Positions 21,565 through 59,757 of a stretch of 64,000 nucleotides of DNA are shown here, piece by piece (position 1 is the stretch's first letter; each line of letters opens with the position of its first letter). Source of the stretch: Agarophyton chilense. Taxonomy: Eukaryota > Rhodophyta > Florideophyceae > Gracilariales > Gracilariaceae. Made by a program: the position numbers and the translations under genes. Location: the NCBI GenBank assembly GCA_030374765.1, contig JARGXX010000095.1, forward strand, positions 2,418,001 through 2,482,000. Direction: 5' to 3'. The notes under the pieces were generated by a model. The model ran no database searches. It saw nothing but the letters and a program-made list of their open reading frames with translations, and was not told the DNA's origin.

Positions 21565-22009
21565 TAAGAAGGAGCAACGATATCTGTTGAGCCTTGTAAG
21601 CAGCCGGGCCCTGAGAGATCTTACAGACGCCACGTGGACTGGCCGACCTCAGCTGGACTCAGGCAGATTATTAATTTATTTTTGAGTAGTGTGATAGATT
21701 AGCATCACAGTGCCAGGGAGATCCCAGCGCCTCGCCAGTACTATTTACGTGGCTCGAACGACGCTTCTCCGTTAGAGTACGGTAGGCACCGTTAGGATAC
21801 TAAATTACCCCCTTTGGTATATTAGTTCCACCACTTGGGCTTCAAGCCATCGTTTCCGTAGCTCCAACCTGTAGGACTACGCAGTAAACGCCAGCCCATT
21901 GCACCAAGTACTCTGGGAGTGCCGCCGTCAAGGATTCGACGCTTAGGACCCGCTCTACCACGCTACCACCGGTCGAGACCCGTACGCTGACTTAACCCGT
22001 CATTGCGCA
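21565..22009 (+). repeat. 5' LTR of element 1
   Basis: It aligns along its whole length with 27289-27733. The first bases are altered relative to the 3' LTR. The B-box-like site of the antisense tRNA-like segment (near 21932) is mutated here, while the other LTR copies keep it or carry a single change. Confidence 0.85.
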
Positions 22010-24614
22010 TATGATTCTATCCGCCAGGCTAAAACTCTTGGAGCTCACACGGAACTATGATCCTTTTTGCCCTTGTAAAATGTATACCGACGGTTCGTTC
22101 AAGGGTTTGCCAAGATCTCGGCCGCTCTAAACGCGATGCTGCAGAAGGGAACACCTTCGGAGTTCGAAGCCCTTACGGACGACCAGTACGAAGCATTTCA
22201 GACCCTAAAGGACAAATTGCTGAGCCCACTCATATTGGCCTTACCAAAGCCCAATAGGCCTTTCGTCCTGGACACAGATGCCTCTGATGTCCAAGTGGGT
22301 TGTGCACTGCTACAGGAACAGGAGTCACCGAAGGACTACCGAACTATTCGATACTGGAGCAGAACGCTCACCAGCGCGCAGCGAAACTACAGTACGGCCT
22401 ATAAGACATGTCTAGCCATCTTATGTTCCGTGTTGACACTCCGTCCATACCTCAAGGCAACTAGGTTCACCATTAGGACAGACCATGATTCACTCCGCTG
22501 GCTACTCAATATGACTGATGCATCAAGTCGCCTCAATAGGTGGCTCCTCAGGCTCTCAGAATACGACTACGAGATAACCCATAGGCCAGGCATCAAGCCC
22601 CAGGCAGCAGATGCCCTCTCGCGAATCATTACCGACGCAACTGATGACACTCTATTGGACGACCTAATTCCTACCCCCTTTACAGAAGATGGACCTCAGG
22701 GTTATACGAATACAGATGACCTTATGGGTAAGGTCCAATTAGATGATCTTGAGGTAAAGGAGAACAAAGTATACCTATTGTATTGGGAGACAGTACCACC
22801 CAATTTGACACCACCTCAGGTTAATGCGATAGCCCCGGAGGACAAAGAGCTCCTCCCTATAACTATAGAGGAACTCCTACAGGCGCAGGTCGAAGACGAG
22901 TACTGCAAGGAAACAGCCGAATTTGTAGGAACCCCTGGATATCTATTCGACTACGACCGATTTGGACCACTATGTCGCCGCTCACCGCTGGATGGCGCAC
23001 TCCAACGGGTAATACGAAGTTCATTAAGGGCGCGATTCCTAAACCTCGCCCATTTCACTCACTTGGCTGGTCACCCTGGAGACCGACGAATGTACCAGAC
23101 CCTAAGGAAGTTCTTCTATTGGCAAATAATGGCGCAGGACCTATGGCAAACCGCACGGAACTGTACATCGTGCGCACAAATCCAAGGGTCTCGCGCCAAC
23201 CATCAGGCCAAATTGAAGGGTTTTCCCGCCGCAGGCCCGATGGAATTTGTCGCGATGGATATACTTGGGCCTTTGTCTAAGTCGCCCCATGGGAAACGGT
23301 TTGTTTTGGTTATAACCGATAGGTTTACTAAACTAACCCGAGCCCTACCCCTAGGGAAGACAACAGCCACGGATGTCGCCACAGCCTTCTTGTCCCACTG
23401 GGTATATCCATATTGCATGCCAATCTACCTCCTTACGGATACCGGCAGCCAGTTTGTATCCAAATTCCTCTCATACGTTTCTGCTACCTTAGGTATCAAA
23501 CATGTGACCACCACGGCGTACCACCTGCTAACCAATGGCCCAGCCAAACGCTTCAACGGCACCCTTCTGGACCGACTGGCACACTACGTAGCGGAGCACC
23601 AATTGGACTGGAACAATTAGTTTGAGGCACTGGTTTATGCCTACAACACGCAAGTGCACGCTTCCACAGGGGTAACACCTTTCGATTTAACGATAACGAG
23701 ATCGCCACCGCCGATAGCTGCTGACCTTCAGCAGTCTATTTTACCCCAGGGCATAACCGAAAAAATGACTCCTACCCAGGCGAAGCGCTACTCGCGTCGA
23801 CGAATCGACCACATTATCCAATCGGCGAGACCTATACTGACCAAATCCCAACGGCACTACAAGGTCAATTTCGACAAGGCCGTTTGGAACGCACCGACCT
23901 TTGGGAAAGAAGAACTTTTTTACCTGGACCGGCCACCGAAGGACATTGAGAACCTCGAGAACACTACGCGGAAGCTCTTATCCCGGTCTAAGGGACCATA
24001 CAAAGTCCTTAAGGCCAATCAACACATCATTACGTAATTAATTGACGGACTGCAGGACAGTGTATCGATTGACCTGGTGACACGAGCTCCCAGCTCCCGC
24101 CAATCACCAAAGTCCCAGTCACCTGGCCCAACGGAATCACTAGGACCTCAAGGTCGACGCTCAAGTCCCCACACCCCCTAATTCAGTTTCCGCGGACCCG
24201 ACTAGCCCCATGGACCCGATAATAAATGCCAATGACGATTGCCCATCTCTTCCAACCGACTCCGATGGATTCGCCCCTCTGGACCACACTCTCCTGCCAC
24301 AGCATGAAGACCAACTGCAATATGTGATTTAGCGCATCATCTCGGCCGGTCGGGGAGAAGATGGAACTATGCGCTATCGCGTCCGTTGGTTCGGCTACAC
24401 ACCTGAGGAAGACACTTGGCAAGAGCCTCAAACCATTCCGGCTAATTTCATCCCTCGCTATTGGCGCAAAATCGGCAGCACGAAGCGCAGCCTTCAGGAG
24501 GGGGCAATCATTGGCCCGAACAATACCATAACGCCTCTCGAAACGCTTCGCGACACGACGGTTCGCCGGAGCGCCCGTATCAGGGAACAAATCCAGTCCT
24601 CAGGCGACCCCTGA
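22010..24614 (+). pseudogene. Element 1 pol remnant: RNase H, integrase, chromodomain
   Basis: The main frame (22136-23620, then 23654-24037) has RNase H (FVLDTDASDVQVGCALLQ, RTDHDSLRWLL), the integrase zinc region (HLAGHPGDRRMYQTLRKFFY...C-T-S-C) and an integrase core with MDILGP and LLTDTGSQF. The place of the third catalytic acid reads TNGPAKRFNGT, with Lys where Glu is expected. In RNase H the usual Glu before CLA is Thr (AYKTCLAI). Stops occur at 23618 and 24035. In another frame, after a stop at 24330, a chromodomain follows: MRYRVRWFGYTPEEDTWQEP. The same three stops, frame change and substitutions occur in element 2, so they are older than the split of the two copies. No RT remains. 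Confidence 0.85.
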
Positions 24615-24718
24615 GAAAGACCTGAGACGCTCTCAAGGTTGGGCACCCTCCCGTGGCATGCACGTTTGAGATGCAGGAACGACCTTGGGAAAGCACAAGC
24701 ATTACTTTATTTGACTAA

Positions 24719-26737
24719 CTAACACCATGACATCAAGGTTCGCGGAAGCGCGCCTAACACCAACAGGACTGACTGGGGCGGCACAGAAGTAACTCCGTCG
24801 TCGTCATTGGAATCTGCAGGAGCGAAACCGGGCCTAGGGTCACCCGAGGAGCCAATTGTACCACTAGGATCGGCCCCAGCCAGCCGAGCACGCTTCTTGG
24901 GCGGAGATTCACCTGACGAACTATCGTCACCATCCGAAGCCTCCCGGTCACTCAAATTTAGACCATACCGGTCACTCAAGTCGGAATGAACCATCTGGGA
25001 CATTACTTGGGCATTCTGCTGCAGGATATTGACCATGGCGGTCTTCAGATCCTGACCATGTTGGGCAACCGCGGCGTAGCGCGCCGAGCGACGCGCCCAG
25101 GAGGAAGCTTTCCTCAGGACTTTCGCAATGTCCTTCGAAGCAGTGATACCAATGGTACGGCAGACATGACGGAGATCTGCAGCAGAAGCCGTGGCCGAAG
25201 CAGGAAAGTGTGCCAACCGAGAGGACGGAGCGATGTCGACGCCTCCGGTGGTCGTTTGAGCAAGTGCCTCGCCTACAAGACTTTCGGTTTCGACAGTAAC
25301 ATCGCCAGGAGGAATGTTTAATTGGGCGACGGGCGGCTCATATAAGAGTTCGTCCTGAGGAGAAGCGCCCGGAATAGCTGGAGGAGGGGAAGCGGTCGGC
25401 AACACAAAAGCGGACTCGACCGGAGGATTAACGCCGTCTACGGGTCGGACGAAGGGGTCTTCACCGGAATATTCTCCATCGGACATACCAGCAGGAACCA
25501 ACGGCGTGGCTTCCACATCAGGCTCGAAGCACAGATAATTGAAACCAATGGCCTTCGGATAATAGTCGGGCACATGACGCCTCGGGATGTCCGATGGTTG
25601 ATTCCTCGAAAGCTTGGCGGGATAGGCACTAGTGTCTTCCCGACCCTGCGGGTGTAGCGGAATTGGCGTACACGAGTCGGTATCGTGGTCATACCAAAGG
25701 AACCCGGAAGCCTTGTCCCACTCCACCTGTAGGACATGATCCAAAAAGGCCTGGGCCTCCTCAACGTCGAACTGGGTCTCACGGACGACATTCTGGATGC
25801 CAAGGTTCCGTAGGAAACGAATCATGATGTCCGGGAGCGGGATTAGGCGACCTCGAGAATCGGGTATGTTCTCGTCGTACCATGCCCTCCATTCCTCCGA
25901 ACGTACATTACCACGGATTCCGTACTTTGCGGTATCCAGGAAGGCCATAAGGGACATCACGCCGAACTCAACGAAGGGTACCTGCCAGGACAGGCACGAC
26001 CTTCGGTCATTGTCATCGCCCATGAGTTGGGACGAGTGGTACGCCACCACAGACGGCAAGGGAACCAAAAGGAGCGGCGAGACACGCCAATACATGGCCC
26101 ATTGGTTCTCATCTTAGTAGGGAAGCTAAAGGTATAACGGAAGACGTTTGTCTGCGCTCATGTCGTGAAACCCCACCTGGTGCCAACAAAAGAAGAACCC
26201 CAGGGATTGACGCAGACGACCATCGGGCTCGTGCATCTCTTTCCAATAGACCCTATTGGACATCCAAAACAGGCGGTCATACGGCGCCCGGAAGCACATA
26301 AGCGCCAAGAATTTGTGACCCGCGGGAGGAAATCGAACATGAGACGAGATGAAGCCCGTGTATAGGTCCGAAATGAGTTTTTTCACCCTGAACTGGTATT
26401 CGACTTTCTCCTCGCAGCGGACGTATGGCATGTCCACTTGGATGAGTGTGCGACATCGCGTCGCCGAACGCGGACCCACAGGACAATGCAATCATCGGTT
26501 ATACCACGAGAGGCTGCGCGCGTTCTTGCTGCCCCTCCAGAAATCGGGTATCTTGGCAAACCTTCGGGGGTCGAGATAAATATGACATAACCTTTGGTAT
26601 TCTTCCACATAGGACGGAAGAATGGCATGACCCACTGCCCGTGGATTCCGTCTGATAGTATGGTCATAGTGGTCCCCGGGACGTTCGTGAGCCCTTTGGT
26701 ATCCCAAGGAGCTTCCGGCTTGGTTGTTCGAAGCCAT
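24719..26737 (-). pseudogene. Antisense ORF of element 1 (aORF), about 672 codons with three nonsense codons
   Basis: One reading frame on the strand opposite to pol runs from ATG 26737 (context ACCATGG) to a stop at 24719. It is interrupted only by stops at 26492, 26126 and 26114. The last 458 codons are uninterrupted. Content in order: MASNNQAGSS start, DMPYVRCEEKVEYQ near the middle, FVEFGVMSLMAFLDTAKYGI, then GRLIPLPDIMIRFLRNLGIQ, a Pro/acid-rich linker, a helical region, and a Ser/Asp tail with a nuclear-signal-like PPKKRARL. The stretch AKYGI...GRLIPLP...NVVRETQFDVEE matches the antisense frame of unrelated-family element 3. The stop lies 105 bp from the pol stop, tail-to-tail. I recognise no known domain. 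It is presumably expressed from an antisense promoter in or near the 3' LTR (inference). Confidence 0.72.
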
Positions 26738-27288
26738 GGTACCGCTGCCCACACGCTGGTCCGCTGGTAAACGTATAGGAAAGCCAACGGAAGCGACATA
26801 GTTTGGAGGGAGAACGGCGTATCCGATGGGCTTATAAGGCGAGTTCAGCTTCGCGCGCGACCAATGGAAATGTACCACGATGGGAAGACGAGGTGATGGA
26901 ATTGACCCGAACGGACTGGCAGGCGTGCACCACGGTGGACCGAGCGCCGAGGGTCGCCAAAGAAAGAACGGAGACTAATGAAGGACCCAATGACCGTCAA
27001 AAAAGAAGAAGCCAATGGACCGTCTCGGCAACGCGACGCGAGGAATGCGCCCGCGATGCACCTATGGCCAGCATTCACGGCTCGCGGGAGTTTCAGTGCT
27101 TAGGAAAATTAATTGCCACCCTGGAGCCAATGGTCAGCTCACGCTGCCTCTTACCCCCGCAGGTGATGACGGCGCGACGTCCCGTCGCGCCCAATGGTCC
27201 TGGGAGCATCTAAGCGCTCACGTCCCCTGGGTAAATCATGAGGCATTCTGGACTTCGCCGTGACGGTCGAATCCTAAGAAGGGAGATA
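26738..27288. other. Interior of element 1 between aORF start and 3' LTR, with polypurine tract
   Basis: The last bases (about 27276-27288, AAGAAGGGAGATA) form the polypurine tract that primes plus-strand DNA in LTR elements. The rest corresponds to the 5' flank and leader of the antisense ORF. Related sequence is present in element 2 between 39502 and 40133. Confidence 0.6.
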
Positions 27289-27733
27289 TGTGAAGGTGCA
27301 ACGACATCGTTTGAGCCTTGTAAGCCGCCAGGCCCTGACGGATCTTACAGACGCCACGTGGACTGGCCGACCTCAGCTGGACTCAGGCAGATTATTTATT
27401 TATTTTTGAGTAGTGTGATAGATTAGCATCACAGTGCCAGGGAGATCCCAGCGCCTCGCCAGTACTATTTACGTGGCTCGAGTGACGCTTCTCCCTTAGA
27501 GTACGGTAGGCACCATTAGGATACTAAATAAACCCCTTTGGTATATTAATTTCACCCTTTGGTCTTCAAGCCATTGTTTCCGGAGCTCCAACCTGTAGGA
27601 CTACGCAGTAAACGCCGGCCCATTGCAACACGCACTCTGGGAGTGCCGCCGTCAAGGATTCGAACCTTAGGACCCGCTCTACCACGCTACCGCCGGTCGA
27701 GACCCGTACGCTGACTTAACCCGTCATTGCGCA
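27289..27733 (+). repeat. 3' LTR of element 1, with antisense tRNA-like segment
   Basis: It begins TGTGAAGGTGCA and ends ATTGCGCA. Read on the - strand, positions 27690-27656 resemble a tRNA D-arm/A-box (TAGCGTGGTAGAGCG) followed by a perfect B-box (GGTTCGAATCC). The anticodon arm is absent. The same pair is visible in both LTRs of element 2. Confidence 0.8.
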
Positions 27734-27914
27734 TATGAGGCCAAAATTACAACATCGACAATTTTTGTAATCTTTGTCAATTTCCTCAAATTTTTGTGCC
27801 TGGACGTTGTCAACAGTCTCTTCTTCTCTGGCGTCAACCTCAAAGATCACGAACGATCGTCCACAACCTGTAAACAACATCATCTTTACTTCATTCTTTC
27901 ATAATTTATCAAAT

Positions 27915-29938
27915 ATGTCATCATCTATGGATCCCCGTCGTGTAGTGGGAAACAGAGTACACACCCGCGCATGTCTCACCACATCAGAGAGCGACTGTAG
28001 ACGCTTCTTTGGCACGCAATGGAAGACGAAACTGGTCAGCGGAAGTGTTACAAAAGTGGATGTTGTTGTCAAAAATAATCCGAGACACACTTTTGTCACG
28101 ATAAACTTCGAGCTACCTGGTTGCGAGAAAGTATGAACTCTCAAACTTTGCAATGTAAAAGCTGGAGATCATGTCACGGTTCAGGAAACTGTTCAAGAAG
28201 CCATCAATTCCAACATGTAGATAAATGGTGCTGCTATTACTACTGAAGTTTCGAACAATGAAGGGCAGCATACTGTCACGGATGTCGATCACTGTCACAC
28301 AAAGAATCCTTTGAGCCCTCCTACTATGACAAACATTGACACGCAAGACAGCTTTGTGGAAGTTCATTCGACGAAATGGACAACTGAAAATGTATTCTTG
28401 ACTCTGAATGGTCCAGTGCAAATGTATCAATGGGAAGTCACGGGACCTGTTGGAGATTTTATCTCCGCCATTCATGCACTCTCGGGACTCTCTCCATACG
28501 ATTTCTTCATGTGGATGTTTCCTGTAGATCATTTGGAAAAAATATTTCGATCTACCAACTCTCGGCTGGAAGAAAAAGGCTTAAAGCAGAGTACAGGAGG
28601 TGAAATTTTGAAGTTTTTCGGTTTGATGGTGTTAATGACACGCTTCGAGTCTTCGAATAGAAGATCGGTTTGGTTTGGTCTAAAGACATATTTTCTAAAT
28701 ATATCGAATCTCCGCACCTTGGAAAGATCATGTCACGAAATCGGTTTTAACATAAAAGGCCATTCATCGTTTTCAGTGGCTCTAAAAACGATCAAAAATC
28801 AGAAGAATGCAGGTGGTCATGCGTTTCTGAGTTTTTGAAAGCTATAAATGACCATCGGAAAGCGTTCGTTACTCCGTCACACACTTTGTGCGTGGATGAA
28901 AGTATGTCACGTTGGTATGGACCTGAAGGGAACTGGATAGAAATTGGACTTCCACACTACACTGCTCTTGATAGAAAATCAGAACATGCACATGGAACAG
29001 CTGTTTTAATGAGACTTGTTGAAAATTGGTTCGCAACTGATCGAATCGTTTGGGCCGATTCATATTTTGCATCTGTTGAAACCGCTGAAGAACTTTTAAA
29101 AAGAGGAATGAGATTTATTGGTGTCGTAAAAACAGCCCCCAGAAGGTTTCCTGTGAAACATCTTTCTGAACGTACGATGACGGCACGAAGCCATCACGTG
29201 TTAATGGTCTCCAAACTGCCTGAATTGGATCGGAAGATGATGTCTGTGCTCTGGGTGCACCGCGAGAGGAGATATTTCATCAGCACTTGTAGCAGTACCC
29301 AACTAGGAACTCCCATTTCTCGTGAAAGATGGAGGACAACTGATGGAATAACAAAGAAAGTTCCGCTTTCCATTGCTGTTCCAGAAGTTTGTGAGGAGTA
29401 CTATTCTTGTTGTTCAAGAATTGATTGGCATAGTAGGTCACTTCAAGATGATCTGAATATGGAAAAGAAGTTTGAAGTGAAAGAATGGTCTTTTAGAGTG
29501 AATACTTCTTTGCTGGCAATGTGCGTGGTTGATGCTTGGAATCTTTACAAGGGTTCATACGGAAAAACATTGAATCTTACACCGCATGAGTTCTATTGTA
29601 ATCTCGCAGACGGATTAATAGATAACAACTGGGATGCTATTCGAACTATGAAAAGAAAATGTAAGGAGGATGATGAAATAGAAACCCCATATATGGCTGG
29701 TACCGGCAGTCATTTAATGGAAACCAATCGAAAAAGAAGAAAATTTGATGGTTCTCTGACGTCTCAAACATACCAAGAACGATACGAAGTCTGCAAGACC
29801 ACTTACAAATCCAAATTTGTTTGTTCAGAATGCAAAAAGTACAATGATATGGATATTTATATATTTCACAGTGGAACCGGTCGAAGGGGTTTTATAGATC
29901 ATCTGCGTGACATTCATCGCATTTCGAGCAACATTTAG
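27915..29938 (+). pseudogene. PiggyBac-like transposase (DDE_Tnp_1_7), broken
   Basis: The frame begins at ATG 27915 (MSSSMDPRRVVGNRV). Stops interrupt it at 28134 and near 28218. It continues through the helical core (WEVTGPVGDFISAIHALSGL, DFFMWMFPVDHL) and shifts frame near 28770-28800. It then runs cleanly to 29938. The three acidic positions of the piggyBac RNase H fold are present: LCVDESMSRWYG, IVWADSYFASVE and CVVDAWNLYKG. The C-terminus (CSECKKYND...HSGTGRRGFIDHLRDIH) resembles the terminal cysteine-rich domain, but some ligands appear lost. Length fits a full transposase of about 670 residues. Two stops and a frameshift make it inactive. Confidence 0.85.
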
Positions 29939-39055: not shown

Positions 39056-39501
39056 TGTAACGCAATGACTGTTGGATCAGCGTACGGGTCTCGATCGGTG
39101 ATAGTGTGGTAGAGCGGGTCCTAAGGTTCGAATTCTTGACGGCGGCACTCCCAGAGTACGTGGTGCAATGGGCTGGCGTTTAATGCGTAGTCCTACAGGT
39201 TGGAGCTACGAAAACGATGGCTTGAAGACCATAGGGAGGAACTAATATACCAAAGCGGGTTAATTAGTATCCTAACGCTGCCTACCGTACTCTAACGGAG
39301 AAGCGTCACTCGAGCCAAGTAAATAGTACTGGCGAGGCGCTGAGATCTCCCTGGCACTGTACTGCTACTCTATTAAACTAATTAAAATAAATTAACAATC
39401 TACATGAGTCCACCTGAGGTCGACCCGTACAAGTGTCACCAGCAAGATCCTCCGACGCCCGGCAGCTTACAGGGCTCAACCGTTATCACTGCACCTTCAC
39501 A
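39056..39501 (-). repeat. 3' LTR of element 2
   Basis: It aligns with 47440-47886 throughout. The + strand tRNA-like segment lies at about 39108-39140 (ATAGTGTGGTAGAGCG, then GGTTCGAATTC), with one change in the B-box compared with the 5' copy. Confidence 0.85.
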
Positions 39502-39785
39502 TATCTCCCTCTTTAGGATTCGACCTTCACGGCGAGGTCCAAATTGCCTCACACCATCCTGGGGCTCTAGCTCTAACTGGACCTATGGGTGAACCTCCAA
39601 TCTTGCCTTCGGGGTCGGAACGTCGTGATCTTGAGCGTCCTAATGGCCTGGACACGAGCGGTGCCGTGCCCGACATGTCGGCGTCTTATGACCAATCCGG
39701 GGGCTAGTGCTCTCGTTACCAATGGGCGCGACGGGGCGTCGCATCGCCACCATCCTCAAGGGTACCAGTGCGCAAGAGCTGACCC

Positions 39786-40689
39786 TTGGCGCCAGGTTGG
39801 CAATTAGACCACCTAAGGTACTGTACGCGCTCCGGGGTGGGGGGGGGTTTCCTTGCTGCTTTTCCTATCCTTCGGTATTCCTTTGGCGACCCTACGCGCG
39901 TTGTCCGCCGTGAACCACGGTTCACGCTTCGCCCGTTCAAGGTCACCTCAGTCATCCTGCCCGATTCGGTTTCATCTTTCCTTCTTCCCGTCGCAGTATT
40001 CCTCTATTGGTCGCGCGCGATGCCGCGATCGCCTTATAAGCCCGTCGGATATGCCATTCTCCCTCCGGACTATGTCGCTTCTGTCGGTTTTCCTATCCAT
40101 TTCCGGGCGGACCAAATTGTGGGCAGCGGCACCATGGCTTCGAACAACCAAGCGGGAAGCTCCTCGGGATACCAAGTGGCTAATGAGCGCCCCGGGGGAC
40201 GCTATGAACAAACCATCGGAAGAAATCCGTGGGCAGTGCGTCATGCCCTTCTGCCGTCCCGTTGGTACTACTGCCTCGATGGACATTGCGACAGTCCTGA
40301 GGGAAGCTTGCTCCTGGGCGCGTCGCTCGGTGCTCTACGCCGCTGTGGTCCAATAAGGTCAAGATCTGAAAACCGTTATGGTCGATATCCTGCAGTTCAA
40401 TGCCCAAGTGATGTCCCAGAGGGTTACTGCCGACTTGGATGCCCGGTATGGTCTCAATTTGAGTGATCAGGAGGTTCCCGATGGTGACAATAGTTCCTCA
40501 TGTGAATCTCCGCCAAATAAGCGTGCTCAGCTCGCTGGGGCTGGATCTGGTGGTCCAGTTGGCTTCTCGGGTGACCCTAGTCCCAGTTTCGCTCCTGCAG
40601 GTTCAAATGAGGACGACGGAGTTACTCTTGCGCCGCCCCAGTGTGTCCGGTTGGTGTTCGGAGCGCTTCCGCGAAACTTCAGGTCATAG
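39786..40689 (+). pseudogene. Antisense ORF remnant of element 2, internally deleted
   Basis: ATG 40134 lies in the same ACCATGG context and the same MASNNQAGSSxGYQ sequence as the antisense ORF of element 1. Upstream frame similarity (SPYKPVGYAILPPDYVASVG) also matches. After RRNP/GRNPWAVRHALLPS the sequence jumps to the equivalent of the C-terminal quarter (MDIATVLREACSWARRS, then MVDILQFNAQVMSQ) in another frame. About 1.35 kb of the element 1 equivalent is therefore missing. The tail (SCESPPNKRAQLAG) matches the nuclear-signal-like tail of element 1. The stop at 40687 is 21 bp from the end of pol on the other strand. Confidence 0.72.
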
Positions 40690-47439: not shown

Positions 47440-47886
47440 TGTAACGCAATGACGGGTTAAGTCAGCGTACGGGTCTCGACCGGTGGTAGCGTGGTAGAGC
47501 GAGTCCTAAGGTTCGAATCCTTGACGGCGGTACTCCCAGAGTACGTGGTGCAATGGGCCGGCGATTACTGCGTATTCCTACAGGCTGGAGCTACGGAAAC
47601 GATAGCTTGAAGACCAAAGGGTGATATTAATATACCAAAGGGGGTTATTTAGTATCCTAACGGTGCCTCCCGTACTCTAAGGGAGAAGCGTCACTCGAGC
47701 CACGTAAATAGTACTGGCGAGGCGCTGAGATCTCCCTGGCACTGTACTGCTAATCTATTACATTAATTAAAATAAATTAATAATCTACATGAGTCCACCT
47801 GAAGTCGACCCGTACACGTGTCACCTGCAAGACCCTTCGAGGCCCGGCAGCTTACAGGGCTAAACCGTTATCACTGCTCCTTTGCA
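47440..47886 (-). repeat. 5' LTR of element 2, with intact A-box/B-box pair
   Basis: On the + strand 47485-47500 reads GGTAGCGTGGTAGAGC and 47510-47520 reads GGTTCGAATCC, a perfect B-box consensus. Transcription from these boxes would be antisense to gag-pol. Confidence 0.85.
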
Positions 47887-47891
47887 ATCTC

Positions 47892-48522: not shown

Positions 48523-49157
48523 TGTCGTATAGTGGCAGAAGGACTGACATTTGAGGTTGTCAATATACTACACTGACCCTGTAGGTGATGGATGCGAGGG
48601 ATCATCGGCCATGCAGCTCCGGGCGAGCTACCAACTAGGTTTTGTCAGCCAAGTGTAGTGTTGACATGTACCTTCTGGTTGAGTAATTGTTAGTGATAGT
48701 AATTGTAATTATGTGTATTTTAGTACAGTAGTTGAGTGGCCACCTGGCACTGTAGCCAGTGTTGGCCAGGTCTCTGACACTAGATCAGAGACCGTGCCTT
48801 GCTGGCACCTCCCGGGTGATCTGGAGAGTGCAGTCCACTGCATATAGGGAACTGAACCCCCCCCCACCCTAATCTAATAAAGACAGGCATCACTTGGGTC
48901 ACGACTATACCTTTTGGTTAATTGGTTCTCAACTACCACACAGGCTTTCCGGCGCGTCGACGCCTACCATCGTTCACCTACACGGTATAGGCTAGTCGCC
49001 CCGCCGGTTGCCCCTGCGGGTTTTCACGGTGCCCTGTTATCATCGAGGTTTACTACGTCTCCCTTCTATGGTTGAGCGTCAACAGGCTCCATACGGTTGA
49101 GCGTGACTACGCTCCCGAGACAAGACAGTAGCATACCACAGAAGTGATTGTATGACA
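48523..49157 (+). repeat. 5' LTR of element 3
   Basis: Direct repeat of 59124-59757. It contains the inverted-repeat-like pair GGCACTGTAGCC / AGTGTTGGCC and GGTTGAGCGT motifs repeated near its end. No A-box/B-box pair like that of the other family is seen. Confidence 0.93.
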
Positions 49158-49304: not shown

Positions 49305-51515
49305 ATGAAACGACCTAAAAGGAATACGCGTGGTGCAAGCGCCCCGCCAAGCCATAAAGGTCTTAAAGGAGCCCCATCGGCTCAAACGATTCTTGAAAAC
49401 CCCGAGGAGCTGCTTCGGCACCCTCGGGACAAAACAGGAAAGGTATATGGTCCGCCGCCTATGGCAACGGAACCTCAAAAGGAATTACCAATCGAGGTTG
49501 CAGCGGAGGAGCTATGGCTTGAGCTCGAAGAGCGAGCGAATGTACTCGTCACCCTCGCGGTCGAGGATGCATTAACCATAAAGGTGAAGTCGGGTACCCG
49601 GATGGTTCTGTCCTCAATGGACGTCGATGCATTTACCCGTATTGTGGTTGACCGAGCAGCTCAAGAGCTATCGGAAAGTATACCTGAAATGGTGAAACGA
49701 TATCTCTTTACAGATGCTAGGGAGCATGTTTACCGCGCTGTGCAGGACCTTTGGGTTTCCGAGGTAATTGCAGAATCCCGACCTACACAGGTGAACATCG
49801 CAAAGCGCATACCACAAGGGTTCCAAATGGGTCATTCCACCTATTCCAAACACTTACCTACCGATAGTGAGTACCTACAAGTTCCAAGGCAGAGTTAAGA
49901 GGTCGCGGGGAAGGTAGATCATCAAGACATTTACCTGCCACCAATTACTGGTTTCGTTCAAAAAGATACCCATGGAGGTGGTCCCAAGGACGATTCGTCT
50001 GACTCGTCGGATGAGCGACGAAGAAACCGAAAAGGGAAGAAGCTGAGGACGAAAAAGGGAAAGAATCGAGAGGATGATTCAGACCCCGACTCGTCAGGCT
50101 CCAGTTCCGATACGAGTTCGTCGTCGGATGATGACCGTAAAGGTAAGATGAAGAACAAAACGAACAGGTCGACGAAGAAGTCGTCGAAAAAGACCCGAAA
50201 GGGTAAAAAGCGATACAATGAGTCGCCCGACTCTGAGTCGGACACCGAAATGGACCAGGAGGTGCACCAACCCTTGAACGATATGTTCACCAAAGCAGTT
50301 GACTACAGGACTTATCGGTTGATCAACGAGTCTTCTGAAAACACCCAAGAGGTGGCTCAGAAGATTAATAAGCACCACACGAAGCTCAGCTTCCAAATAA
50401 GTGACACAGCCTTCACAGGTACGGATCCTATTGCGGTGATTGAGTTTCTACAGAAGTTCAAGCTTGCATGTGACCAAAATGGTTTTTCCGAGGGCGCTGC
50501 TATGTGGCTATTTCAGTTTTACCTGAAAGGACAAGCGTACTGCTTGCTGCAGGGTAGGCTCCGCGGCAATACCTTAGCGGTGGATGAGGATGACACAGAG
50601 ATGCTGGAGTCATACCCAGAAGTGGTCAATTTCCTTTTGGAAACATACGCCACCGATGAGGTTATCCAAGAGGGTTATTCGGAATTCCTCGCCTACCATC
50701 AAAGGTCTGGGCAAACCGAATCGGAGTTTTCGCTCGCGCTTTAGAATCTGGCAACCCGTCGTGGAAAAGTGTTCACTACCTCTAGGTTAAAGTTGCTATT
50801 TGCCGATAATGTCGACAAAGCGATCCGTTTCCAGGTACGAAATTACCTGGCCATTAACCGAGAGATGGGCTACAATGGGCTGCCTCGATACTCCCAGGGC
50901 CTTGGAGATACCCTTCGGTTGGGTAAGAGACCAGCCGTGCCTCCAACCTCGCAGGATACACCGAAAAGGTCGGTCTTGGAAATTGAAGATACCACAACCT
51001 CAGAGGGTAGCTCGCACCTTAAAGTACCTACAGGGACCGCTATCCACTTGGTAGCGACCCAGGGGCGGTTCTCTAAACCTTCAACGTTAGGAAATTGGTC
51101 GTCAACGCGTACTCCACACTCTGTACAATCGCCGCCAAGTGCGGTGCGCTTGCATAAGATGCCGGGAGCTCGCTCCAATAACTTGCCGCCCACATCCTAC
51201 GCCACTGCCCCTACCAACCAGGTTTGGAGGCCCCCCTCAATGATAACGCGAGACCCCCAAACTGGAGGCCTCGTTTGCTGGTTCTGTCTCGCGACAGACC
51301 ATTTGGCAAACAATTGCGCTAACTTACCTTCAGGGATGAGAGACCAGTTGATTCAGGCTCGCATGCAGAATCAACAACGCCTCTATGGGTCTTCAACGCA
51401 AGCACCAAATAAGTTGCAACCCCTTCCACCGGTACAGGTCAATACCATCGAGGAAACACCAAAGTTGGACTCAACCCCTCCCGTACAGGAGGAAAACACC
51501 GAACGGGTGACGTAA
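49305..51515 (+). pseudogene. Element 3 gag with CCHC zinc knuckle
   Basis: ATG 49305 (MKRPKRNTRGA) is chosen; the frame is open but ATG-less upstream. One frame continues to 51515 with stops only at 49896 and 50742, about 736 codons. The first third is mixed helical, then comes a Ser/Asp and Lys-rich charged stretch (RKGKMKNKTNRSTKKSSKKT). The capsid-like domain follows (DPIAVIEFLQKFKLACDQNG, EGAAMWLFQFYLKGQA, LLETYATDEVIQ) and a C-terminal knuckle CWFCLATDHLANNC, which fits Cys-x2-Cys-x4-His-x4-Cys exactly. The gag stop TAA shares its last A with the next ATG. Confidence 0.82.
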
Positions 51516-54500
51516 TGGCCGAACCCAACCTTCAATTGGAAGGCCAATCGATACCCAGAACCTTGAAGGTGGAAGAGAACACGTCACAACCAGTTCCGGT
51601 ATGTCATATGAAGTGCAATAACTATAAAGTACGTGCTTCAATGTGTTTCTCCGATCGCCTTGCGGTTACGGTCACCTGCGTGTTGGATACGGGGGCCGGC
51701 CCAAACGTCCTGAACTCCCGCGTCATACCTGAGGCGGTACTTCGGAACTTGAGCCGACCTCCCGACAACACCCCGCTGGTGGATGCAAATGAGCGCCCAT
51801 TAAACCTTAGAGGTATGCTCACCACTGTGGTGCAGCTCGGACACCTCAAGGTAAGACTGCAATTCTTTGTGGTCGACCGGTTACCAACAGACTACCTACT
51901 AGGTACGAACTTCATTGACAGACATATCAAAGCAATCCTTCCTGGTTCCCGTACCGTCGCTCTACGTCACGTGGGACGAATTTCCATTTTATGTAATACG
52001 GAAACCAAACGGGGATGGTTCGTCAAACCGAAAAAGACGATATCCACCGAAACAGTCTCCAACAAAGTGCGCATTACCAAACAGGTTGTTATCCCGCCAA
52101 TGCACCAAATATTGGTACCGGTGTCGTGTGCGACCCCCGGGCTGGTCATACTACAAAACCATCCGAGGTTAGCACATCGACACCTCACCTTGATGGCCAA
52201 CGGGATTGTCGACAACATCCCAAATCAACCCTTGAAGGTGTGTCTCTCAGCAACTTCAGCTGTCACGACGTGAAGTTGCCGAAAAACACCAATGTTGGCA
52301 TCGCACTACCGGCACCACAAGGGGTCTTCACCGTAGCTCACACTGATCTCAGCAAGGTCGCCTTCGATAAGGAAGGGGCGCGCGCAAATGCTTCCACAGC
52401 CACAAAGGTATCGATAAATACCAACTTGGAATCAAAGCTAACCGATAAGGCATCGGTAGACAAAGAAGAGGAACCTGAACCTGAGAGGCAATGGAAAGAT
52501 ACAGTCCAGATCGGTGAAGAAAACGGCGAACTGCGAGGCCGTATCCTCAACCTTCTGGAGGAGTTTGAAACCATGTGGTCAGGCCATCTGGGCCAAATCA
52601 AGGCCACACAGCATCGCATCGAGCTCCTCCCTGACTCGAAGCCGATTTATCAGCAGCCATGCCGTGCAGGTCCGAAGGCGAGAGAAGTAGAACTCAAAGA
52701 AGTGGAGCGAATGCTCGAAGAAGGTGTAATTGAACCAGCCAACTCAGATTGGGATAGTCCCGTTGTTTTGGCTCAGAAGAAAGTGGATAACCGTATGAGG
52801 ATCTGTGTGGGCTACAGAAGGCTCAATAGCGTGACCGTCAGGGATTCGTACCCGTTACCTAGAATGGATGAGTGCATCGACTCCTTGGGAGATGCGCAGA
52901 TATTTTTCACGTTGGATGCCAATTGTGGTTATTGGCAGGTACCTGTAGGTGAGGAAGATCGAGACAAAACGACCTTCACGTGCCATGCAGGTTCGTTTCG
53001 CTTCACGCGGATGCCTTTCGGGTTGCGCAATGCTCCAGCCACCTTTCAAAGGGCGCTGGACATCCTCCTTTCGAAGGTTAGATGGACAAAAGCCTTGGTA
53101 TACATCAATGATGTAATTATCTATTCCAGATCGGTAGAAGAGCATTTTGCTCACGTCCGCACCGTACTAACCCTCCTAGCTGAGGCGAGGGTGACGCTGA
53201 AGCTACGCAAATGCGTCTTCTTTACCAAAACGGTTGAATACCTGGGCCACATCATAGGCCCTGGTACCCTAGAAGTTGCACTGAGCAACATTAGAGCCGT
53301 ATAGGAGGTCAAGGTGCCACGATCCCAGACAGAAGTACGATCCTTTATAGGTTTATGCAACGTCTATCGTCGCTTCGTGAATGGATTCGCGAAAATAACG
53401 GCTCCTCTCAACAAGAAGCTCCAGAAAGGTGAACCTGAACGGTTTGAGAATCTATCGAACGACGAAATAGACACTTTTGAGGAATTGAAACGAGCGCTGT
53501 TGTCGCCGCCGATCTTAGCGTTACCGAAAACAGGTCTACCATACACGCTGGATACAGAGGCATCCCATGCCCAAATTGGTTGTTGTCTCATGCAGGAGCA
53601 TCACAACGCAGACAAATTACCTGTAGGATACTGGAGCCGCGCTATGAATGAGGCGGAGCAGAACTACACGGTAACCGAGAAGGAATGTCTAGCAGTAGTG
53701 TGGAGCATGTTGATGCTCCGTCCATACTTGTATGGTGAGCGCTTTACGTTGCGCACGGACCACGACACCTTAAGGTGGATCCTCGGACTCGCAGATGCGT
53801 CTGGTATATTTGCCCGTTGGAGGTTGAGACTATCGGAGTTTGAATACGACGTACAGTACCGTCCAGGTATCAAGCACAACATAGCTGACGCTATGTCACG
53901 CTTAAACACCTCAGGGATAGAGACAGATCCGGTGGCGGATGATATCCCTTGCTTTTTGGTGTCATCAAACCAAAATGGTACCGGCGAACACCTAGAAGGA
54001 TATTGGGACTTACCTGAAGAACGTGCTTTGCGGAAAACCGACATGGCAACGCAGATGCTGACCCTAGAGGAAACGAACGTCATGCCCGTAACCCGAGAGG
54101 AATTTCTACGAAAACAGGGCCAGGATGCGTACTGCAGAACTCTGGCTGACCAAATTGGTTTCAAAGGATCACCGTTCGATGTGGACCAAAATGGGTACAT
54201 CGTGAGAAGGTCAACCTTGGATGATAGCCTCAAAAAAAAGGTTCCGAAGGCACTGCGCCCGAGAGTCTTGTATCACGCGCACTACCCGCGACTATCGGGA
54301 CACCCCGGTGCCACCAGGATGTATTACATCTTGAGGAAAATGTTCTATTGGCCTCATATGGCGCATGATGTCTATACCTTTGTATGTCAATGCGAATCTT
54401 TTGTTCGTACCCGCGGTGGTATTCGAAAGCATCGAAAGTACCTCAACCTGTTTCCAGCAGCGGTTCCACTGGAGTTTGTTGCGATAGACCTTCTAGGACC

Positions 54501-55806
54501 ACTTCCCAAAACCAAGAATGGGTATCAGCACATTCTAGTGATCACCGACAGATTCTCGAAGCTCACGAGAGCGATATCTTTAAAGGAGACGAAGTCAACC
54601 ACGCTGGCGATTGCGTTCCTCAACAATTGGGTCTACCCGTATGGTGCACCACTGTACCTACTTACCGATAATGGTTCAAACTTGGCATCGAAGTTCTTCG
54701 AAGCAGTCTGTAACCTCCTGGGTATCAAGCACTATTTCATTACTGCCTACCACCCCCAGACGAACGGACAGGTCGAGCGCTTTAACCACACTTTGGTATC
54801 AAAGCTACTCCACTATACGGAAGAGCACCAAACTGGGTGGGATGAGCTGGTGCAACCGCTCACCTACTCCTATAACCTTCAGGTACACCGGTCAACGCAG
54901 ACCACTCCCTTTGATTTGGTTCTTTCGCGACACCCCCCAGGTATTGTAGTGCAGGGAGATCAAACCACCAGCACTGCAGCTGGCACACTGACCCCTGCCC
55001 AAGTCAAGCGAAATACCCTTGTGAGGTTGAGGAGGGCTCTCAAACATACAGAGAGCCGCCTCACTGCAGCCCAGAAGCGGTACAAGGCCGACTACGACCG
55101 TAGAATAACCAAAGTGGTCTCCGTATCTTCGGAACAATATGTATACATAGAAAACCCACCTTCAAATAAAAGAGCACAACCAGGTGATGAAGCGAACGAT
55201 GAAGCTATTGATTGAGATATAAATTCGAAGCTTCTACCCAAAACAGTGGGACCTTATAAGGTATTGAACGCATCAGACCACACCGTTACGGTTGACCAAG
55301 ATGGAATACCGAATACGATATCAATTGACCGTATTACGCTAGCACCTGAAACGGTTCAACATCGCATGGAGGCGGACACCTCAGCCCGAGAGCCCAGAGT
55401 GGTAGCTCTGCGCACTCGACCCTCGGAGGACCCCACCCCAATTTAGGTGAATGATGAACTACAACGAGATGGTGCGGATTACAACCCTCTAACAGGGATG
55501 GAAATGGAACCTCACACGGTAACAGCGGGAGCTCCCAGCCCGGCTCCCACAAACGAAGCTCCCGACTCGGAACATAGGAACTCTTGAGGTGGCGTTCCCC
55601 CGAAAGATCAGGACCAAACCTCAGAGGAATTTCCCGTTGACCGTCTTGTGGGCCACACGCAAACCTACAATGGTCTGAAGTACACCGTAAGGTGGTACGG
55701 CTGGGGCCCTGAAGGGGACACCCTCGAACCCCCAGCCGCAATACCCCCACACTTTCGTATCAGATACTGGCGCCGTCGCAAGGAGCCGATGCCTGCAGAC
55801 GGCTAA
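51515..55806 (+). pseudogene. Element 3 pol: protease, RT, RNase H, integrase, chromodomain
   Basis: It begins at ATG 51515 in the frame -1 to gag (TAATG overlap). Protease: TCVLDTGAGPNVLNS. A frameshift near 52240 leads into RT (RMRICVGYRRLNSVTVRDSY, FFTLDANCGYWQVP, MPFGLRNAPATFQRAL). The catalytic Y-x-D-D box reads YINDV, with Asn for the first Asp. After TAG 53302 come RNase H (TLDTEASHAQIGCCLMQ, TVTEKECLAVVW, RTDHDTLRWIL) and integrase (HPGATRMYYILRKMFYW, VAIDLLGP, LLTDNGSNL, TNGQVERFNHT), with a complete D-D-E set but Phe in the second zinc Cys pair (CESFVRTR). Stops at 55213, 55444 and 55585 precede a chromodomain, YTVRWYGWGPEGDTLEPPAA. Confidence 0.88.
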
Positions 55807-55966: not shown

Positions 55967-58222
55967 TTAAGAAGGACCTGGCGGTTTACGAGCAATGGAA
56001 TCAGGAGGACCCGTGTTATTGACTACCCAGGGAGGAAAACTTGCAGGAATGCTAGGAGCCATCGACCTCAGAGGTAGCGAAGGAGCGGTAGCCCCGCCAC
56101 TGGGGAGAGGAGTCGAACCCAAAAGAGGATGAACGAAAGGAACCGCCGGAGCAGGTTTCAAAACTGCATGGTTCAAGTTGGCTCCCAGAAGGGGATCTGT
56201 CAAAGGATCAGATATCGCGGCACCAGAGACACTTGCCAGATTGGCAACCTGACGGGTGGCCAGTTTGTACATGTCCAAATGGAACTGATTCGGGAACTCC
56301 GCAAGTTGGTTCAGCGCCTTCATGTATTGCGCATGGCGCGGCAGCAAACCTTCAAGGATCGTTAATGAAGCAACCATGGAGGTAGGCCCAGCCCTCTGAA
56401 AGTTTGAAACGCATGACTGGGGAATTCGAGCCAGCAAACCGACCACGGCCGGAGAATCCATCATAGGTTGAGGCGGAGGACGAGAAATACCCGCCAACAG
56501 AGGTCAAACTGGACCAGCAACCCGCGAGGAGCTCGGTTGAGTAGGAGTCACACCCGTAGGGATAGGCGACTTACGACCTTGGGGTAACGGCTCGGACAGG
56601 AAGGGACCAGCATAACGACCAACTGGTGTCTCCACAGTACCATGATAAGGTTCGGGGCTCGCGGGAGCTCCATAAACAGGAGGATCCCCGGGATAGTATT
56701 GAGCCTGGCCAGGCACAATCTCCCAAGTTGCGGGATCGAAAACCTCCCAACCTTGATGAGAATCCCAATGGTAATTCTTGCTCTGCTGGACATACGAGTC
56801 CAAATCCTTCACGGTATAATCGGTCCGCTCCACGATGTTCTCGTAACCAAATCGGGAAATATCCTGGACAACCCTCGGAGGTATGAAGAAGATGCGACCT
56901 ACAGGTTGAACACCATCTCGGTATATGTCAGAGTCGGGATTGCGACAATTCCAATGGATACCGTAACGGGCGGCCTTCAGAGCCGGGATGGCAACCAACA
57001 AGGTCCACTCCGAGAGGGCAATCGACCAAATGAGGTAATACCGCTCTAGGTTCTGGAAAATCTGTCTCCCGAAGTACGCCAAGACCGGCGGAGTGGGCAC
57101 ACTCCGTGATAACCGAACCTCATAGGACTCCCACCACTCTGGTCGAAGCACATACCAATCGCGTCTGTCCCTCGTAGGTTGTGAGAAGTACTCGACGTTA
57201 TGAAACATATGCATAACGCGAGTGTACGAGTTGCGAGTGCGAACGCGACTCTCCGTCGCTGCATCCTCGCCCCGCCTACTACGGTCAGCCCAATTGATAG
57301 TGGTGAAAGGCCTATTCAGGGAAACCAAGTCAGTTGAAACCGGAAGGGAAGTCTCCGGAATAGACTGGTACTGGCACACTTGCACCACCAATCGACGGTA
57401 ATAATCCAGCTCCGGTTCGATGCGCACATACGGCAAGTCAATAGGATATATCGGCGGAATGAAATACCTCAAAGATATATGACGCTGCCGACTCTGGTAA
57501 CATTCCAGTCAACCCTGACGAGGTTGAGACTCTTGGTCTCTTTTCTTCAAGAGCAATGGAACAGAGCGAAGGCGCTCGCAGTCCCAACGAGACAAACCCA
57601 AGTAGGTATCCAATTGTGGTCTGGTAAGAGCTGCCGGCAATGACGAATTCCCCACCGCCACAAGCCAATCGTGCTTCAACAGGTCATTGTTCGTCACCTG
57701 GTCGAAGGTAGTGCCAAAAGGTCCATACTGACTCGTCGTCCGGTTCGCCGCACCGAACGCGAGATTGTGAGCGCAATTGGTTTAGATCATCGAATGAAGT
57801 CCACCACTGCGTTAGTACGGGTCAGCCGGAGTCCCAGGGGAGAACTCAGTCGCAGGGACAGGCATACTGCGAAACCCATTGTTGGTAGGCGTTCGCGAAG
57901 TCGAGCGAGTCACCCTCTTGGTAATACCACCGCGTCCACAGCCAAGAGATGGGCCGCTACCTGACATGGATGGGAAGGCCGTAGCTCGACCCGACGAACG
58001 AGGTGATGACTCGGCCTCCACCGCCGCGGTGAACACCAGCGGGTATTCATCCTTCTGAAGTGGAGCCTCCTCGGTCCGTTCTGAGGAGACGGCCAACGTA
58101 TCCAACCTTTCCGGTAGTACCGACATCGACCTTTCAGGTGCAAAAGTTGCTGGCGTACGGTCTCGAGTGGTTCCAGACCTTTGTGGTATCGTGAAACGGG
58201 ACCAATCCGACCTTAAAGGCAT
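55967..58222 (-). pseudogene. Antisense ORF of element 3 (aORF), about 751 codons with four nonsense codons
   Basis: A single reading frame opposite to pol runs from ATG 58222 (MPLRSDWSRF) to TAA 55967. Stops at 57812, 57782, 57509 and 56504 break it. The frame could extend farther, to 58594 past one more stop. The N-terminal part is Ser/Thr/Arg-rich. Then come LRYFIPPIYPIDLPYVRIEP, FTTINWADRSRRG, LVAIPALKAARYGIHWNC, then GRIFFIPPRVVQDISRFGYE and NIVERTDYTVKDLDSYVQ, a Pro-rich linker, and a helical tail (MDSPAVVGLLARIPQSC). The DLPYVRIEPELDY and ARYGI...GR-IF-IPP...NIVERTDYTVKD segments align with DMPYVRCEEKVEY and AKYGI...GR-LI-PLP...NVVRETQFDVEE of element 1. No known domain is recognised. 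The middle (57472-56504) is open for 322 codons. Confidence 0.72.
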
Positions 58223-59123
58223 AACTGCAGTGGTATCATCCCCTCGGAATCGCCGACTTCTTCAACATCGATGGTAACCGGCATCTCACGTCTCTCGAGC
58301 GCTGGTGCTGCTTGTGGGGACGATCCACCCCTTCGAGGTATCGGTGACGAATCCACGACGCGGCGCGAGGTGCCCCGACGTGGTACCGAATGGGTTCGAA
58401 CGCGTGCGCGGAGGCAGCGCGATCCTGTCATTGCCTTGAGGGTAATTCGGAATGCAAAACCGGAAAAAGGTCACGTAATTACCGACAGGGCCGCTCAACA
58501 CCAATAAGGTCTCACAATCGGAAGCTTCCACCACGGACCCAGACCAACACCACATTGGTTGCATCGACGCAGGCTCAGGCCCCACCGGCGCCACGAGTCT
58601 ATCCCTACAAGGTAGACAAAACCCGAAAGGTCGAGAAGACAGGAAACTTTCAGGGAAAGCCGGACAGCCCGGTTACGGTCGCGACGCCGCCAATCAAGGG
58701 CGACAATACCTGAAGGGTTGTCGAGCCGTGGGAACGACCATGCCGGACGGCGCGCGCAGAGACCTAGGAGGGAACTAAAGTTTGAGTAACCGGGAAGGGT
58801 GAGAAACCAACTTGCTTAGACAGCGGGCTATGCGGAAGCAGAACCGCAAGCAAGCAGGGCCACTACCGAAAAGGTGTCCGAGAGCGTGCTAGATACACTG
58901 CATCGCCCTCATGACAGTCCCTACCTGAGTGGTTGTCGCCCAATTCGTGCGCCGACGTCGTCGCGCGTCCTCCCCAACCGATTCTGGCGCCGAGTTCTGA
59001 ACCTCAAGGGATCGCGCGCCGCGCGCAGACACCACTCCGATGCCCGCGCCACTGTCGCTCGCTCCACCTCTATGGGTTGATGGAAGGAGACACGGAGCGT
59101 GCCTCACGGGTAGGAAGGGGGTC
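58223..59123. other. Element 3 interior between aORF start and 3' LTR
   Basis: GC-rich. It contains the polypurine tract at 59112-59121. It is the expected site of the aORF promoter. Short frames on both strands are present, and the - strand frame 58594-58286 is in phase with the aORF, so the true start could be there. Confidence 0.45.
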
Positions 59124-59757
59124 TGTCGTATAGTGGCAGAAGGTCTGACCTTTGAGGTTGTCCATATACTACACTGACCCTGTATGTTATGGATGCGAGG
59201 GATCATCGGCCATGCAGCTCCGGGCGAGCTACCGTCTAGGTGTTGTCAGCCAAGTGTAGTGTTGACATGTACCTTCTGGTTGAGTAATTGTTAGTGATAG
59301 TTATTTTAATTATGTGTATTTTAGTACAGCAGTTGAGTGGCCACCTGGCACTGTAGCCAGTGTTGGCCAGGTCTCTGACACTAGGTCAGATACCGTGACT
59401 TGCTGGCACCTCCCGGGTGATCTGGAGAGTGCAGTCCACTGCATATAGGGAACTGAACCTCCCCCACACTAATCTAATAAAGACAGACATCACTTGGGTC
59501 AAGACTATACCTTTTGGTTAATTGGTTGTCAACTACCACACAGGCTTTCCGGCGCGTCGACGCCTACCATCGTTCACCTACACGGTATAGGCTAGTCGCG
59601 CCGCCGTTTGCCCCGGCGGGTTTTCACGGTGCCCTGTTACCATCGAGGTTTACTACGTCTCCCTTCTATGGTTGAGCGTCAACAGGCTCCATACGGTTGA
59701 GAGTGACTACGCTCCCGAGACAAGACAGTAGCATACCCCAGAGGTGATTGTACGACA
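59124..59757 (+). repeat. 3' LTR of element 3
   Basis: Direct repeat of 48523-49157 with scattered substitutions. It is followed by CTTTC (59758-59762), the right target duplication. Confidence 0.93.

What the first reader, a model, noticed from the sequence alone, without database searches (positions are those of the whole stretch)
55967..58222. The same antisense protein family occurs in an unrelated chromovirus family
Seen: the antisense frame of element 3 (about 751 codons) shares ordered blocks with that of element 1: DLPYVRIEPELDY vs DMPYVRCEEKVEY; ARYGI vs AKYGI; GR-IF-IPP vs GR-LI-PLP; NIVERTDYTVKDLD vs NVVRETQFDVEEAQ. Position and orientation (after the chromodomain, convergent) are identical, while the LTRs are unrelated and pol is strongly diverged. 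Inference: conservation across families argues for selected coding function, such as an envelope-like, silencing-suppressor or packaging role. I recognise no domain, so the role is open.
Basis: partly seen in the sequence, partly recalled or inferred. Interest (0 to 1): 0.92.

Follow-up and report, generated by a model that had tools for sequence, protein, structure and literature searches.

The report
Backward gene in seaweed jumping genes
Several families of retrotransposons in a red seaweed carry the same extra protein gene, written backwards behind their usual genes and kept by selection; the layout is known from land plants, but the protein looks new and its job is still unknown.

Summary
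Confirmed and enlarged. The reverse-strand frames of elements 3 and 1 are homologous: BLASTP E=2e-16, 61/265 identical; hhalign of copy sets E=3e-12, 304 columns; their DNA and LTRs show no significant similarity. At least 124 and 92 copies were scored. In both families the reverse frame is coding: dN/dS 0.61 and 0.46, stops several-fold rarer than in the other five frames. The genome holds at least four such families, probably five; in the probable fifth, 8 of 12 rows lie 2-3 kb from a chromodomain or integrase hit on the opposite strand. Relatives: Agarophyton chilense (perhaps the window's own species), a Trinity-assembled EukProt entry, two unnamed assemblies. No Pfam family was found for the core. 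The layout matches plant antisense ORFs (Grande, RIRE2, Retand; PMC7264820) without their Pfam domains. Best reading: an accessory protein of red-algal chromoviruses, probably nuclear and regulatory (basic motif in one family, coiled coil in a relative). The role is inferred; structure prediction failed twice. New variant of a known kind.

The parts
55967..58246 (-). Antisense gene of element 3 (decayed copy, four internal stops). Upstream end from alignment to the L056 ORF, residues 14-771 of the 772 counted from its Met71; the first 13 residues did not align in this frame.
   Evidence: homologous to 124 scored places in the genome, itself included
56504..57472 (-). Longest stop-free piece of that gene; its first ~265 residues are the conserved core domain
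24779..26845 (-). Antisense gene of element 1 (decayed copy); 24719-26095 is its longest listed ORF (458 aa)
40020..40635 (+). Remains of the same gene in element 2 (element on minus strand): residues 1-79 and 554-681 only, the core is deleted
48523..49157 (+). 5' LTR of element 3, preceded by CTTTC
59124..59757 (+). 3' LTR of element 3, followed by CTTTC (5-bp target-site duplication); purine tract GGAAGGGGG just before it
51515..52273 (+). Protease part of pol, element 3 (PF13975, E 3e-6, at the cut-off)
52015..53304 (+). Reverse transcriptase part, element 3 (PF00078, E 2.9e-29)
53314..55215 (+). RNase H and integrase part, element 3 (PF17917, PF17921, PF00665)
55588..55803 (+). Chromodomain, element 3 (PF00385 E 4e-4, 20.7 bits, below the 25.1 cut-off)
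22136..23620 (+). RNase H and integrase of element 1 (starts 122 bases after its 5' LTR, so gag, protease and RT are missing)
24333..24611 (+). Chromodomain of element 1 (PF00385 E 1.8e-5, 25.0 bits against cut-off 25.1)
21568..22014 (+). 5' LTR of element 1
27292..27738 (+). 3' LTR of element 1

Best explanation
It is a protein-coding accessory gene of red-algal Ty3/gypsy elements with chromodomains (chromoviruses), lying between the end of pol and the 3' LTR on the opposite strand. SHOWN by computation: the reverse frame is coding and under purifying selection in two families; the protein is homologous in at least four families (probably five) of one genome and in other sources; the gene keeps position and orientation relative to pol in three of them. 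INFERRED: it is translated from its own reverse-strand transcript; the protein is a nuclear factor with a core domain of about 270 residues and a helical C-terminal part that may pair molecules; it acts on the element's own DNA, chromatin or transcription, for example to keep the element expressed against host silencing or to tune its transcription, in the way proposed for plant antisense ORFs.
For: Homology. Coding selection: dN/dS in the gene's frame 0.61 (codon bootstrap 0.56-0.69, 30 copies) and 0.46 (0.42-0.51, 30 copies), falling with divergence (e3 0.69 to 0.55, e1 0.62 to 0.38 by dS quartile), core lowest (0.46, 0.35); stops 3.2 and 6.1 per 1000 codons against 23-43 and 20-36 in the other five frames. 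In 60-codon windows the first is neutral in both reference ORFs (0.94, 1.11) and the signal starts with the second, which holds a Met (71; 67). Linkage: among 70 listed e3 pol copies there are 34 pairs, and among 87 listed e1 pol copies 21 pairs, with a listed antisense hit 0-4 kb downstream, all on the opposite strand; none on the same strand, none upstream. 8 of 12 rows of the probable fifth family lie 2.0-3.2 kb from a chromodomain and/or integrase hit on the opposite strand; in one, both pol hits are in a 1085-codon frame beside an 852-codon gene frame. Expression hint: P0003 is a Trinity-assembled EukProt entry. Nuclear hint: a PPKKRARL-like motif in 24 of 30 e1 copies by a loose pattern; P0007 has an acidic VVILDSDDE stretch, a coiled-coil region (14 generic models, all below cut-off, about 446-572) and a basic KRPRRG end.
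Against: No reverse-strand RNA, protein, localisation or phenotype was available. Basic motifs are common by chance; none was looked for systematically in e3; the e1 tail with the motif evolves almost neutrally (dN/dS 0.87). In e3 the linker and parts of the C-terminal third are weak (windows 0.80-0.82), and in two e3 windows and the first e1 window another frame has the lower ratio. A conserved hydrophobic stretch (Kyte-Doolittle 1.8-2.1) could be a membrane helix. The 30 copies per family are those most similar to the window's protein, which may lower dN/dS somewhat. P0003 could come from DNA in an RNA library, and its species is unknown. Both structure models were unusable (mean pLDDT 26 and 38).
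Confidence: 0.5

Rival explanations
1. Envelope-like or membrane protein: the gene gives the element a way between cells or into membranes.
For: A hydrophobic 19-mer at the same alignment place in e3, e1, P0003 and P0007 scores 1.77-2.09 (placement).
Against: The stretch has a central Glu in all four and lies inside the conserved domain; the env-like genes described in PMC7264820 (part 1 read) run in the sense direction; e1 and P0007 carry basic motifs. Signal peptides and glycosylation sites were not tested.
Confidence: 0.1
2. The gene's main effect is through its reverse RNA (double-stranded RNA or antisense control of gag-pol), the protein being secondary.
For: The gene is convergent with pol, and antisense transcripts are discussed as regulators of some elements (PMC7264820, part 2 read).
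Against: Amino-acid conservation across families without significant DNA similarity between e1 and e3, dN/dS below 1 and stop depletion point to a protein; in the window the gene does not overlap the pol ORFs.
Confidence: 0.12
3. A host-derived or other mobile-element gene captured once in an ancestor, now carried and selected for a task unrelated to nuclear regulation (for example packaging or an enzyme).
For: No Pfam, NCBIfam or convincing PDB relative of the core, so a catalytic or structural role cannot be excluded; the conserved pattern fits a folded domain.
Against: No host or viral homologue turned up: the protein searches returned A. chilense proteins without names, one EukProt entry and two unnamed assemblies (two of the three searches scored only a capped set of candidates), and a viral-contig scan with P0007 found none. 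This is weak evidence, as distant relatives can be missed.
Confidence: 0.25
4. Chance antisense ORF created by codon bias or by the sense strand, with no function.
For: Antisense ORFs arise easily; the window copy has four internal stops.
Against: The other five frames of the same copies carry 20-43 stops per 1000 codons; over the whole ORF the gene's frame has the lowest dN/dS in both families; homology between families.
Confidence: 0.02

Closest known systems
Antisense additional ORFs between pol and 3' LTR of plant LTR retrotransposons (aORF-3R / eORF-3'R: maize Grande gene23, rice RIRE2, Silene Retand ORF4, PvRetro13)
   Same: Same place and orientation, present in many copies, conserved, function unknown; Grande's product is nuclear (PMC7264820, parts 1-2 of 3 read).
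   Different: Here the elements have chromodomains and the host is a red alga (inferred); no Transposase_28 or plant mobile domain was found. [quoted passage not shown]
Antisense ORF of fungal Boty elements
   Same: Antisense ORF between pol and 3' LTR outside plants (named in PMC7264820).
   Different: No sequence comparison was made here.
HTLV antisense proteins HBZ/APH-2
   Same: Reverse-strand proteins of a retroelement with nuclear location (stated in PMC11963269, passages).
   Different: No sequence relation tested; analogy only.

Membership tests
aORF-3R / eORF-3'R (antisense ORF between pol and 3' LTR) | Lies between pol and the 3' LTR, opposite strand | tested here: met
   Window elements 1 and 3; elsewhere only relative to pol: 34 pairs among 70 and 21 among 87 listed pol copies, all opposite
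aORF-3R / eORF-3'R (antisense ORF between pol and 3' LTR) | ORF of at least 250 codons kept in many copies | tested here: met
   Stop-free frames of 785-876 codons in 6 of 30 e3 loci; 7 of 12 rows of the probable fifth family list an 852-codon frame
aORF-3R / eORF-3'R (antisense ORF between pol and 3' LTR) | Own reverse-strand transcription (reported for Grande) | not testable with these tools
   Only hint is the Trinity-assembled entry P0003
Retand/Ogre antisense proteins | Transposase_28 (PF04195) or plant mobile domain (PF10536) | tested here: not met
   Neither family among the Pfam hits at E up to 5, 1 and 5
Chromovirus | Chromodomain at the end of pol | tested here: met
   Above the Pfam cut-off behind three listed e1-type pol copies (C1:232012, C68:1303800, C80:459447; read) and near 7 of 12 rows of the probable fifth family. 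The window's elements 1 and 3 fall short: 25.0 and 20.7 bits against 25.1, so e3 stays unproven
Chromovirus | RT/integrase phylogeny within the chromovirus branch | not tested
   No tree built
Retroviral or env-like protein | Sense orientation; signal peptide; transmembrane segment | tested here: inconclusive
   Antisense, so the orientation differs; one hydrophobic stretch; signal peptide not tested

The most novel reading that the evidence does not exclude
A lineage-wide, ancient antisense gene of red-algal chromoviruses whose nuclear protein protects or steers the element (anti-silencing, or partner of the chromodomain integrase): an invention of the antisense accessory gene independent of those in plant Tat/Retand elements and HTLV-like viruses.
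Probability: 0.25. Interest if true: 0.75.

Novelty: new variant of a known kind. Interest (0 to 1): 0.6.

Why it matters
Plant antisense and other extra ORFs have been hard to interpret because their proteins are so diverse that a function was questioned (PMC6317226, passages). Here one protein family survives in at least four element families, with a measurable selection signal in the two tested, and some copies have open frames, so the question of what an antisense retrotransposon gene is for becomes testable on a single conserved domain. A layout like that of plant elements in a red alga, with a protein of no detectable relation, would point to repeated invention.

Tried and rejected
Structure prediction of the full ORF (21 rows: mean pLDDT 25.9) and of the core (23 rows: 37.8) failed; no fold search was made on them. 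Pfam, NCBIfam and PDB sequence searches gave nothing convincing for the core: four families each hit one of 23 members at E 0.07-0.18, and the two PDB rows (E 0.02-0.03) are designed TIM barrels; both taken as chance. Viral contigs: an alignment query could not be used; a scan with P0007 matched 3 stretches by pattern, none a relative. Literature for such a gene in red algae: judged from the listings, no paper describes one; only open-licence PMC papers are held. The Ectocarpus TE paper (PMC12477816, passages read) describes chromodomain Gypsy elements; the passages shown mention antisense small RNAs but no antisense ORF.

Full report
Setting. The window is part of a 79.8 Mb genome in 135 contigs. 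Proteins of the red alga Agarophyton chilense are close relatives of the frames studied, so the window is probably from that species or a near relative; this is inference. Three LTR elements lie in the window: element 1 (LTRs 21568-22014 and 27292-27738; its pol starts within the RNase H part), element 2 (LTRs about 39056-39507 and 47440-47891, minus strand; its RNase H-integrase is 96% identical to element 1's) and element 3 (LTRs 48523-49157 and 59124-59757, about 95.6% identical, flanked by CTTTC on both sides).

The observation. The reverse frame of element 3 (55967-58222) has 752 codons with four internal stops. It matches element 1's reverse frame with BLASTP E=2e-16, 61/265 identical; the Smith-Waterman score of 174 compares with 45 +/- 6, maximum 69, in 300 shuffles. 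Profile-profile comparison of 11 element-3-type and 10 element-1-type open copies gives Prob 97.6, E=3e-12 over 304 columns. The DNA of the two regions and the LTRs show no significant similarity, and pol is 45% identical over 495 residues. So the similarity is visible at protein level only.

Many copies. The own-genome searches scored 124 (of 1416 candidates) element-3-type and 92 (of 1083) element-1-type places; these are lower bounds. Of the 30 element-3-type loci cut out, 6 have stop-free frames of 785 to 876 codons.

Coding selection. In 30 copies per family (the best-scoring ones), the gene's frame has dN/dS 0.613 and 0.460; the other five frames give 0.73-0.99 and 0.54-1.26. Stops are 3.2 and 6.1 per 1000 codons against 23-43 and 20-36. 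Codon bootstraps give 0.557-0.689 and 0.421-0.509; the ratio falls as copies diverge, and the core is lowest, 0.46 and 0.35 (the element-1 N-terminal segment gave no value there because of gaps). In windows of 60 codons the first is neutral (0.94 and 1.11) and the signal starts with the second, which holds Met71 of the L056 ORF and Met67 of the L024 ORF. Weak spots: in element 3 the windows 601-660, 661-720 and 781-840 reach only 0.80-0.82; in windows 1-60 and 781-840 of element 3 and 1-60 of element 1 another frame is lower; the element-1 tail 691-748 is at 0.87. Within-family values are raised by decay after insertion; on the other side, copies were chosen by similarity to the window's protein, which may lower them.

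More families. The weakest rows of one search led to a third family (L070, L071; later L074, L075): 31-37% identical to the element-3 ORF over 460-490 residues, 41% over 198 residues of the core. A neighbouring stretch, fetched in the hope of its pol, held no pol match but a decayed relative on the other strand (L076; element-1 protein E=2.6e-20, 27%; no hit with the element-3 protein): a fourth family, seen once. So pol linkage is not shown for these two. A probable fifth family tops the search with P0007: the 12 rows above the first element-1-type row are 34-36% identical to P0007, 7 list an 852-codon frame, and 6 of those have no stop in the match; none overlaps the 92 listed element-1-type rows. 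Its letters were not seen, so that it is separate from element 1 and from L076 is probable, not shown. Hence at least four families, probably five.

Position. Among 70 listed element-3 pol copies there are 34 pairs with a listed antisense hit 0-4 kb downstream, all on the opposite strand, none on the same strand, none upstream; most gaps lie at 1463-1479 bases. For element 1 there are 21 pairs among 87 listed pol copies, likewise all opposite, none upstream. The lists are truncated, so the remainder are not shown to lack the gene. Of the 12 rows of the probable fifth family, 8 have a chromodomain and/or integrase hit 2.0-3.2 kb away on the opposite strand; one further row has a chromodomain hit only on the other side, 5.1 kb away, and 3 have none. 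Chromodomains near 7 of these rows pass Pfam's cut-off, as do those about 0.7 kb behind three listed element-1-type pol copies, whereas those of the window's elements 1 and 3 fall short.

Outside this genome. The database searches returned A. chilense proteins without names, P0003 (EukProt, a Trinity assembly; 62% identical over 262 residues, no gaps; 63% at most to near full-length copies listed here and up to 67% to partial ones, so another species is likely), P0007 (581 aa, Logan/ENA) and P0012 (Logan). P0007 matches both families about equally (31% and 32%) and shows a core, an acidic VVILDSDDE stretch (recalled as resembling a SUMO-interacting motif), a coiled-coil region and a basic end.

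What it does. No known domain was found for the core and both structure models are unusable. The element-1 family has a PPKKRARL-like basic motif near its C terminus in 24 of 30 copies by a loose pattern, though that tail is nearly neutral. A conserved hydrophobic stretch keeps a membrane role possible. By analogy with plant antisense ORFs, of which Grande's product is nuclear (PMC7264820, parts 1-2 of 3 read) and Retand's are suggested to regulate transcription (PMC11963269, passages), a nuclear regulatory accessory protein is the best guess, at about even odds.

Relation to the known. The architecture is that of aORF-3R/eORF-3'R genes. A plant survey found eORFs in many Ty3/gypsy elements, their proteins heterogeneous, and most OTA (non-chromovirus) elements had them (PMC6317226, passages). 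Here the carriers have chromodomains, the host is a red alga (inferred), and one protein family spans at least four element families. The listings of eight literature searches showed no account of this in red algae; the library lacks most subscription papers. I file it as a new variant of a known kind.

Noticed in passing
window 40020-40635: Element 2 keeps only residues 1-79 and 554-681 of the antisense gene, the two pieces abutting; the core is missing although its RNase H-integrase ORF is open.
   Followed up: partly
window 21568-27738: Element 1 has no gag, protease or RT ORF between its 5' LTR and its RNase H ORF, so it is internally deleted yet keeps the antisense gene.
   Followed up: no
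window 28311-29938: Two ORFs that look like a piggyBac-type transposase (recalled resemblance, no family search made).
   Followed up: no
window 16325-17077: A host-like ORF (250 aa) with 8 further partial matches in the genome, 41-64% identical, 6 of the 8 with stops inside the match.
   Followed up: no
L071 and L076 (C1:466701-471600): Genes of two different antisense families lie about 2 kb apart on opposite strands, suggesting nested or adjacent elements.
   Followed up: partly
G000 C1:1406129-1410419: A probable fifth-family element with an 852-codon gene frame facing chromodomain and integrase hits in a 1085-codon frame, no stops in the matches.
   Followed up: partly
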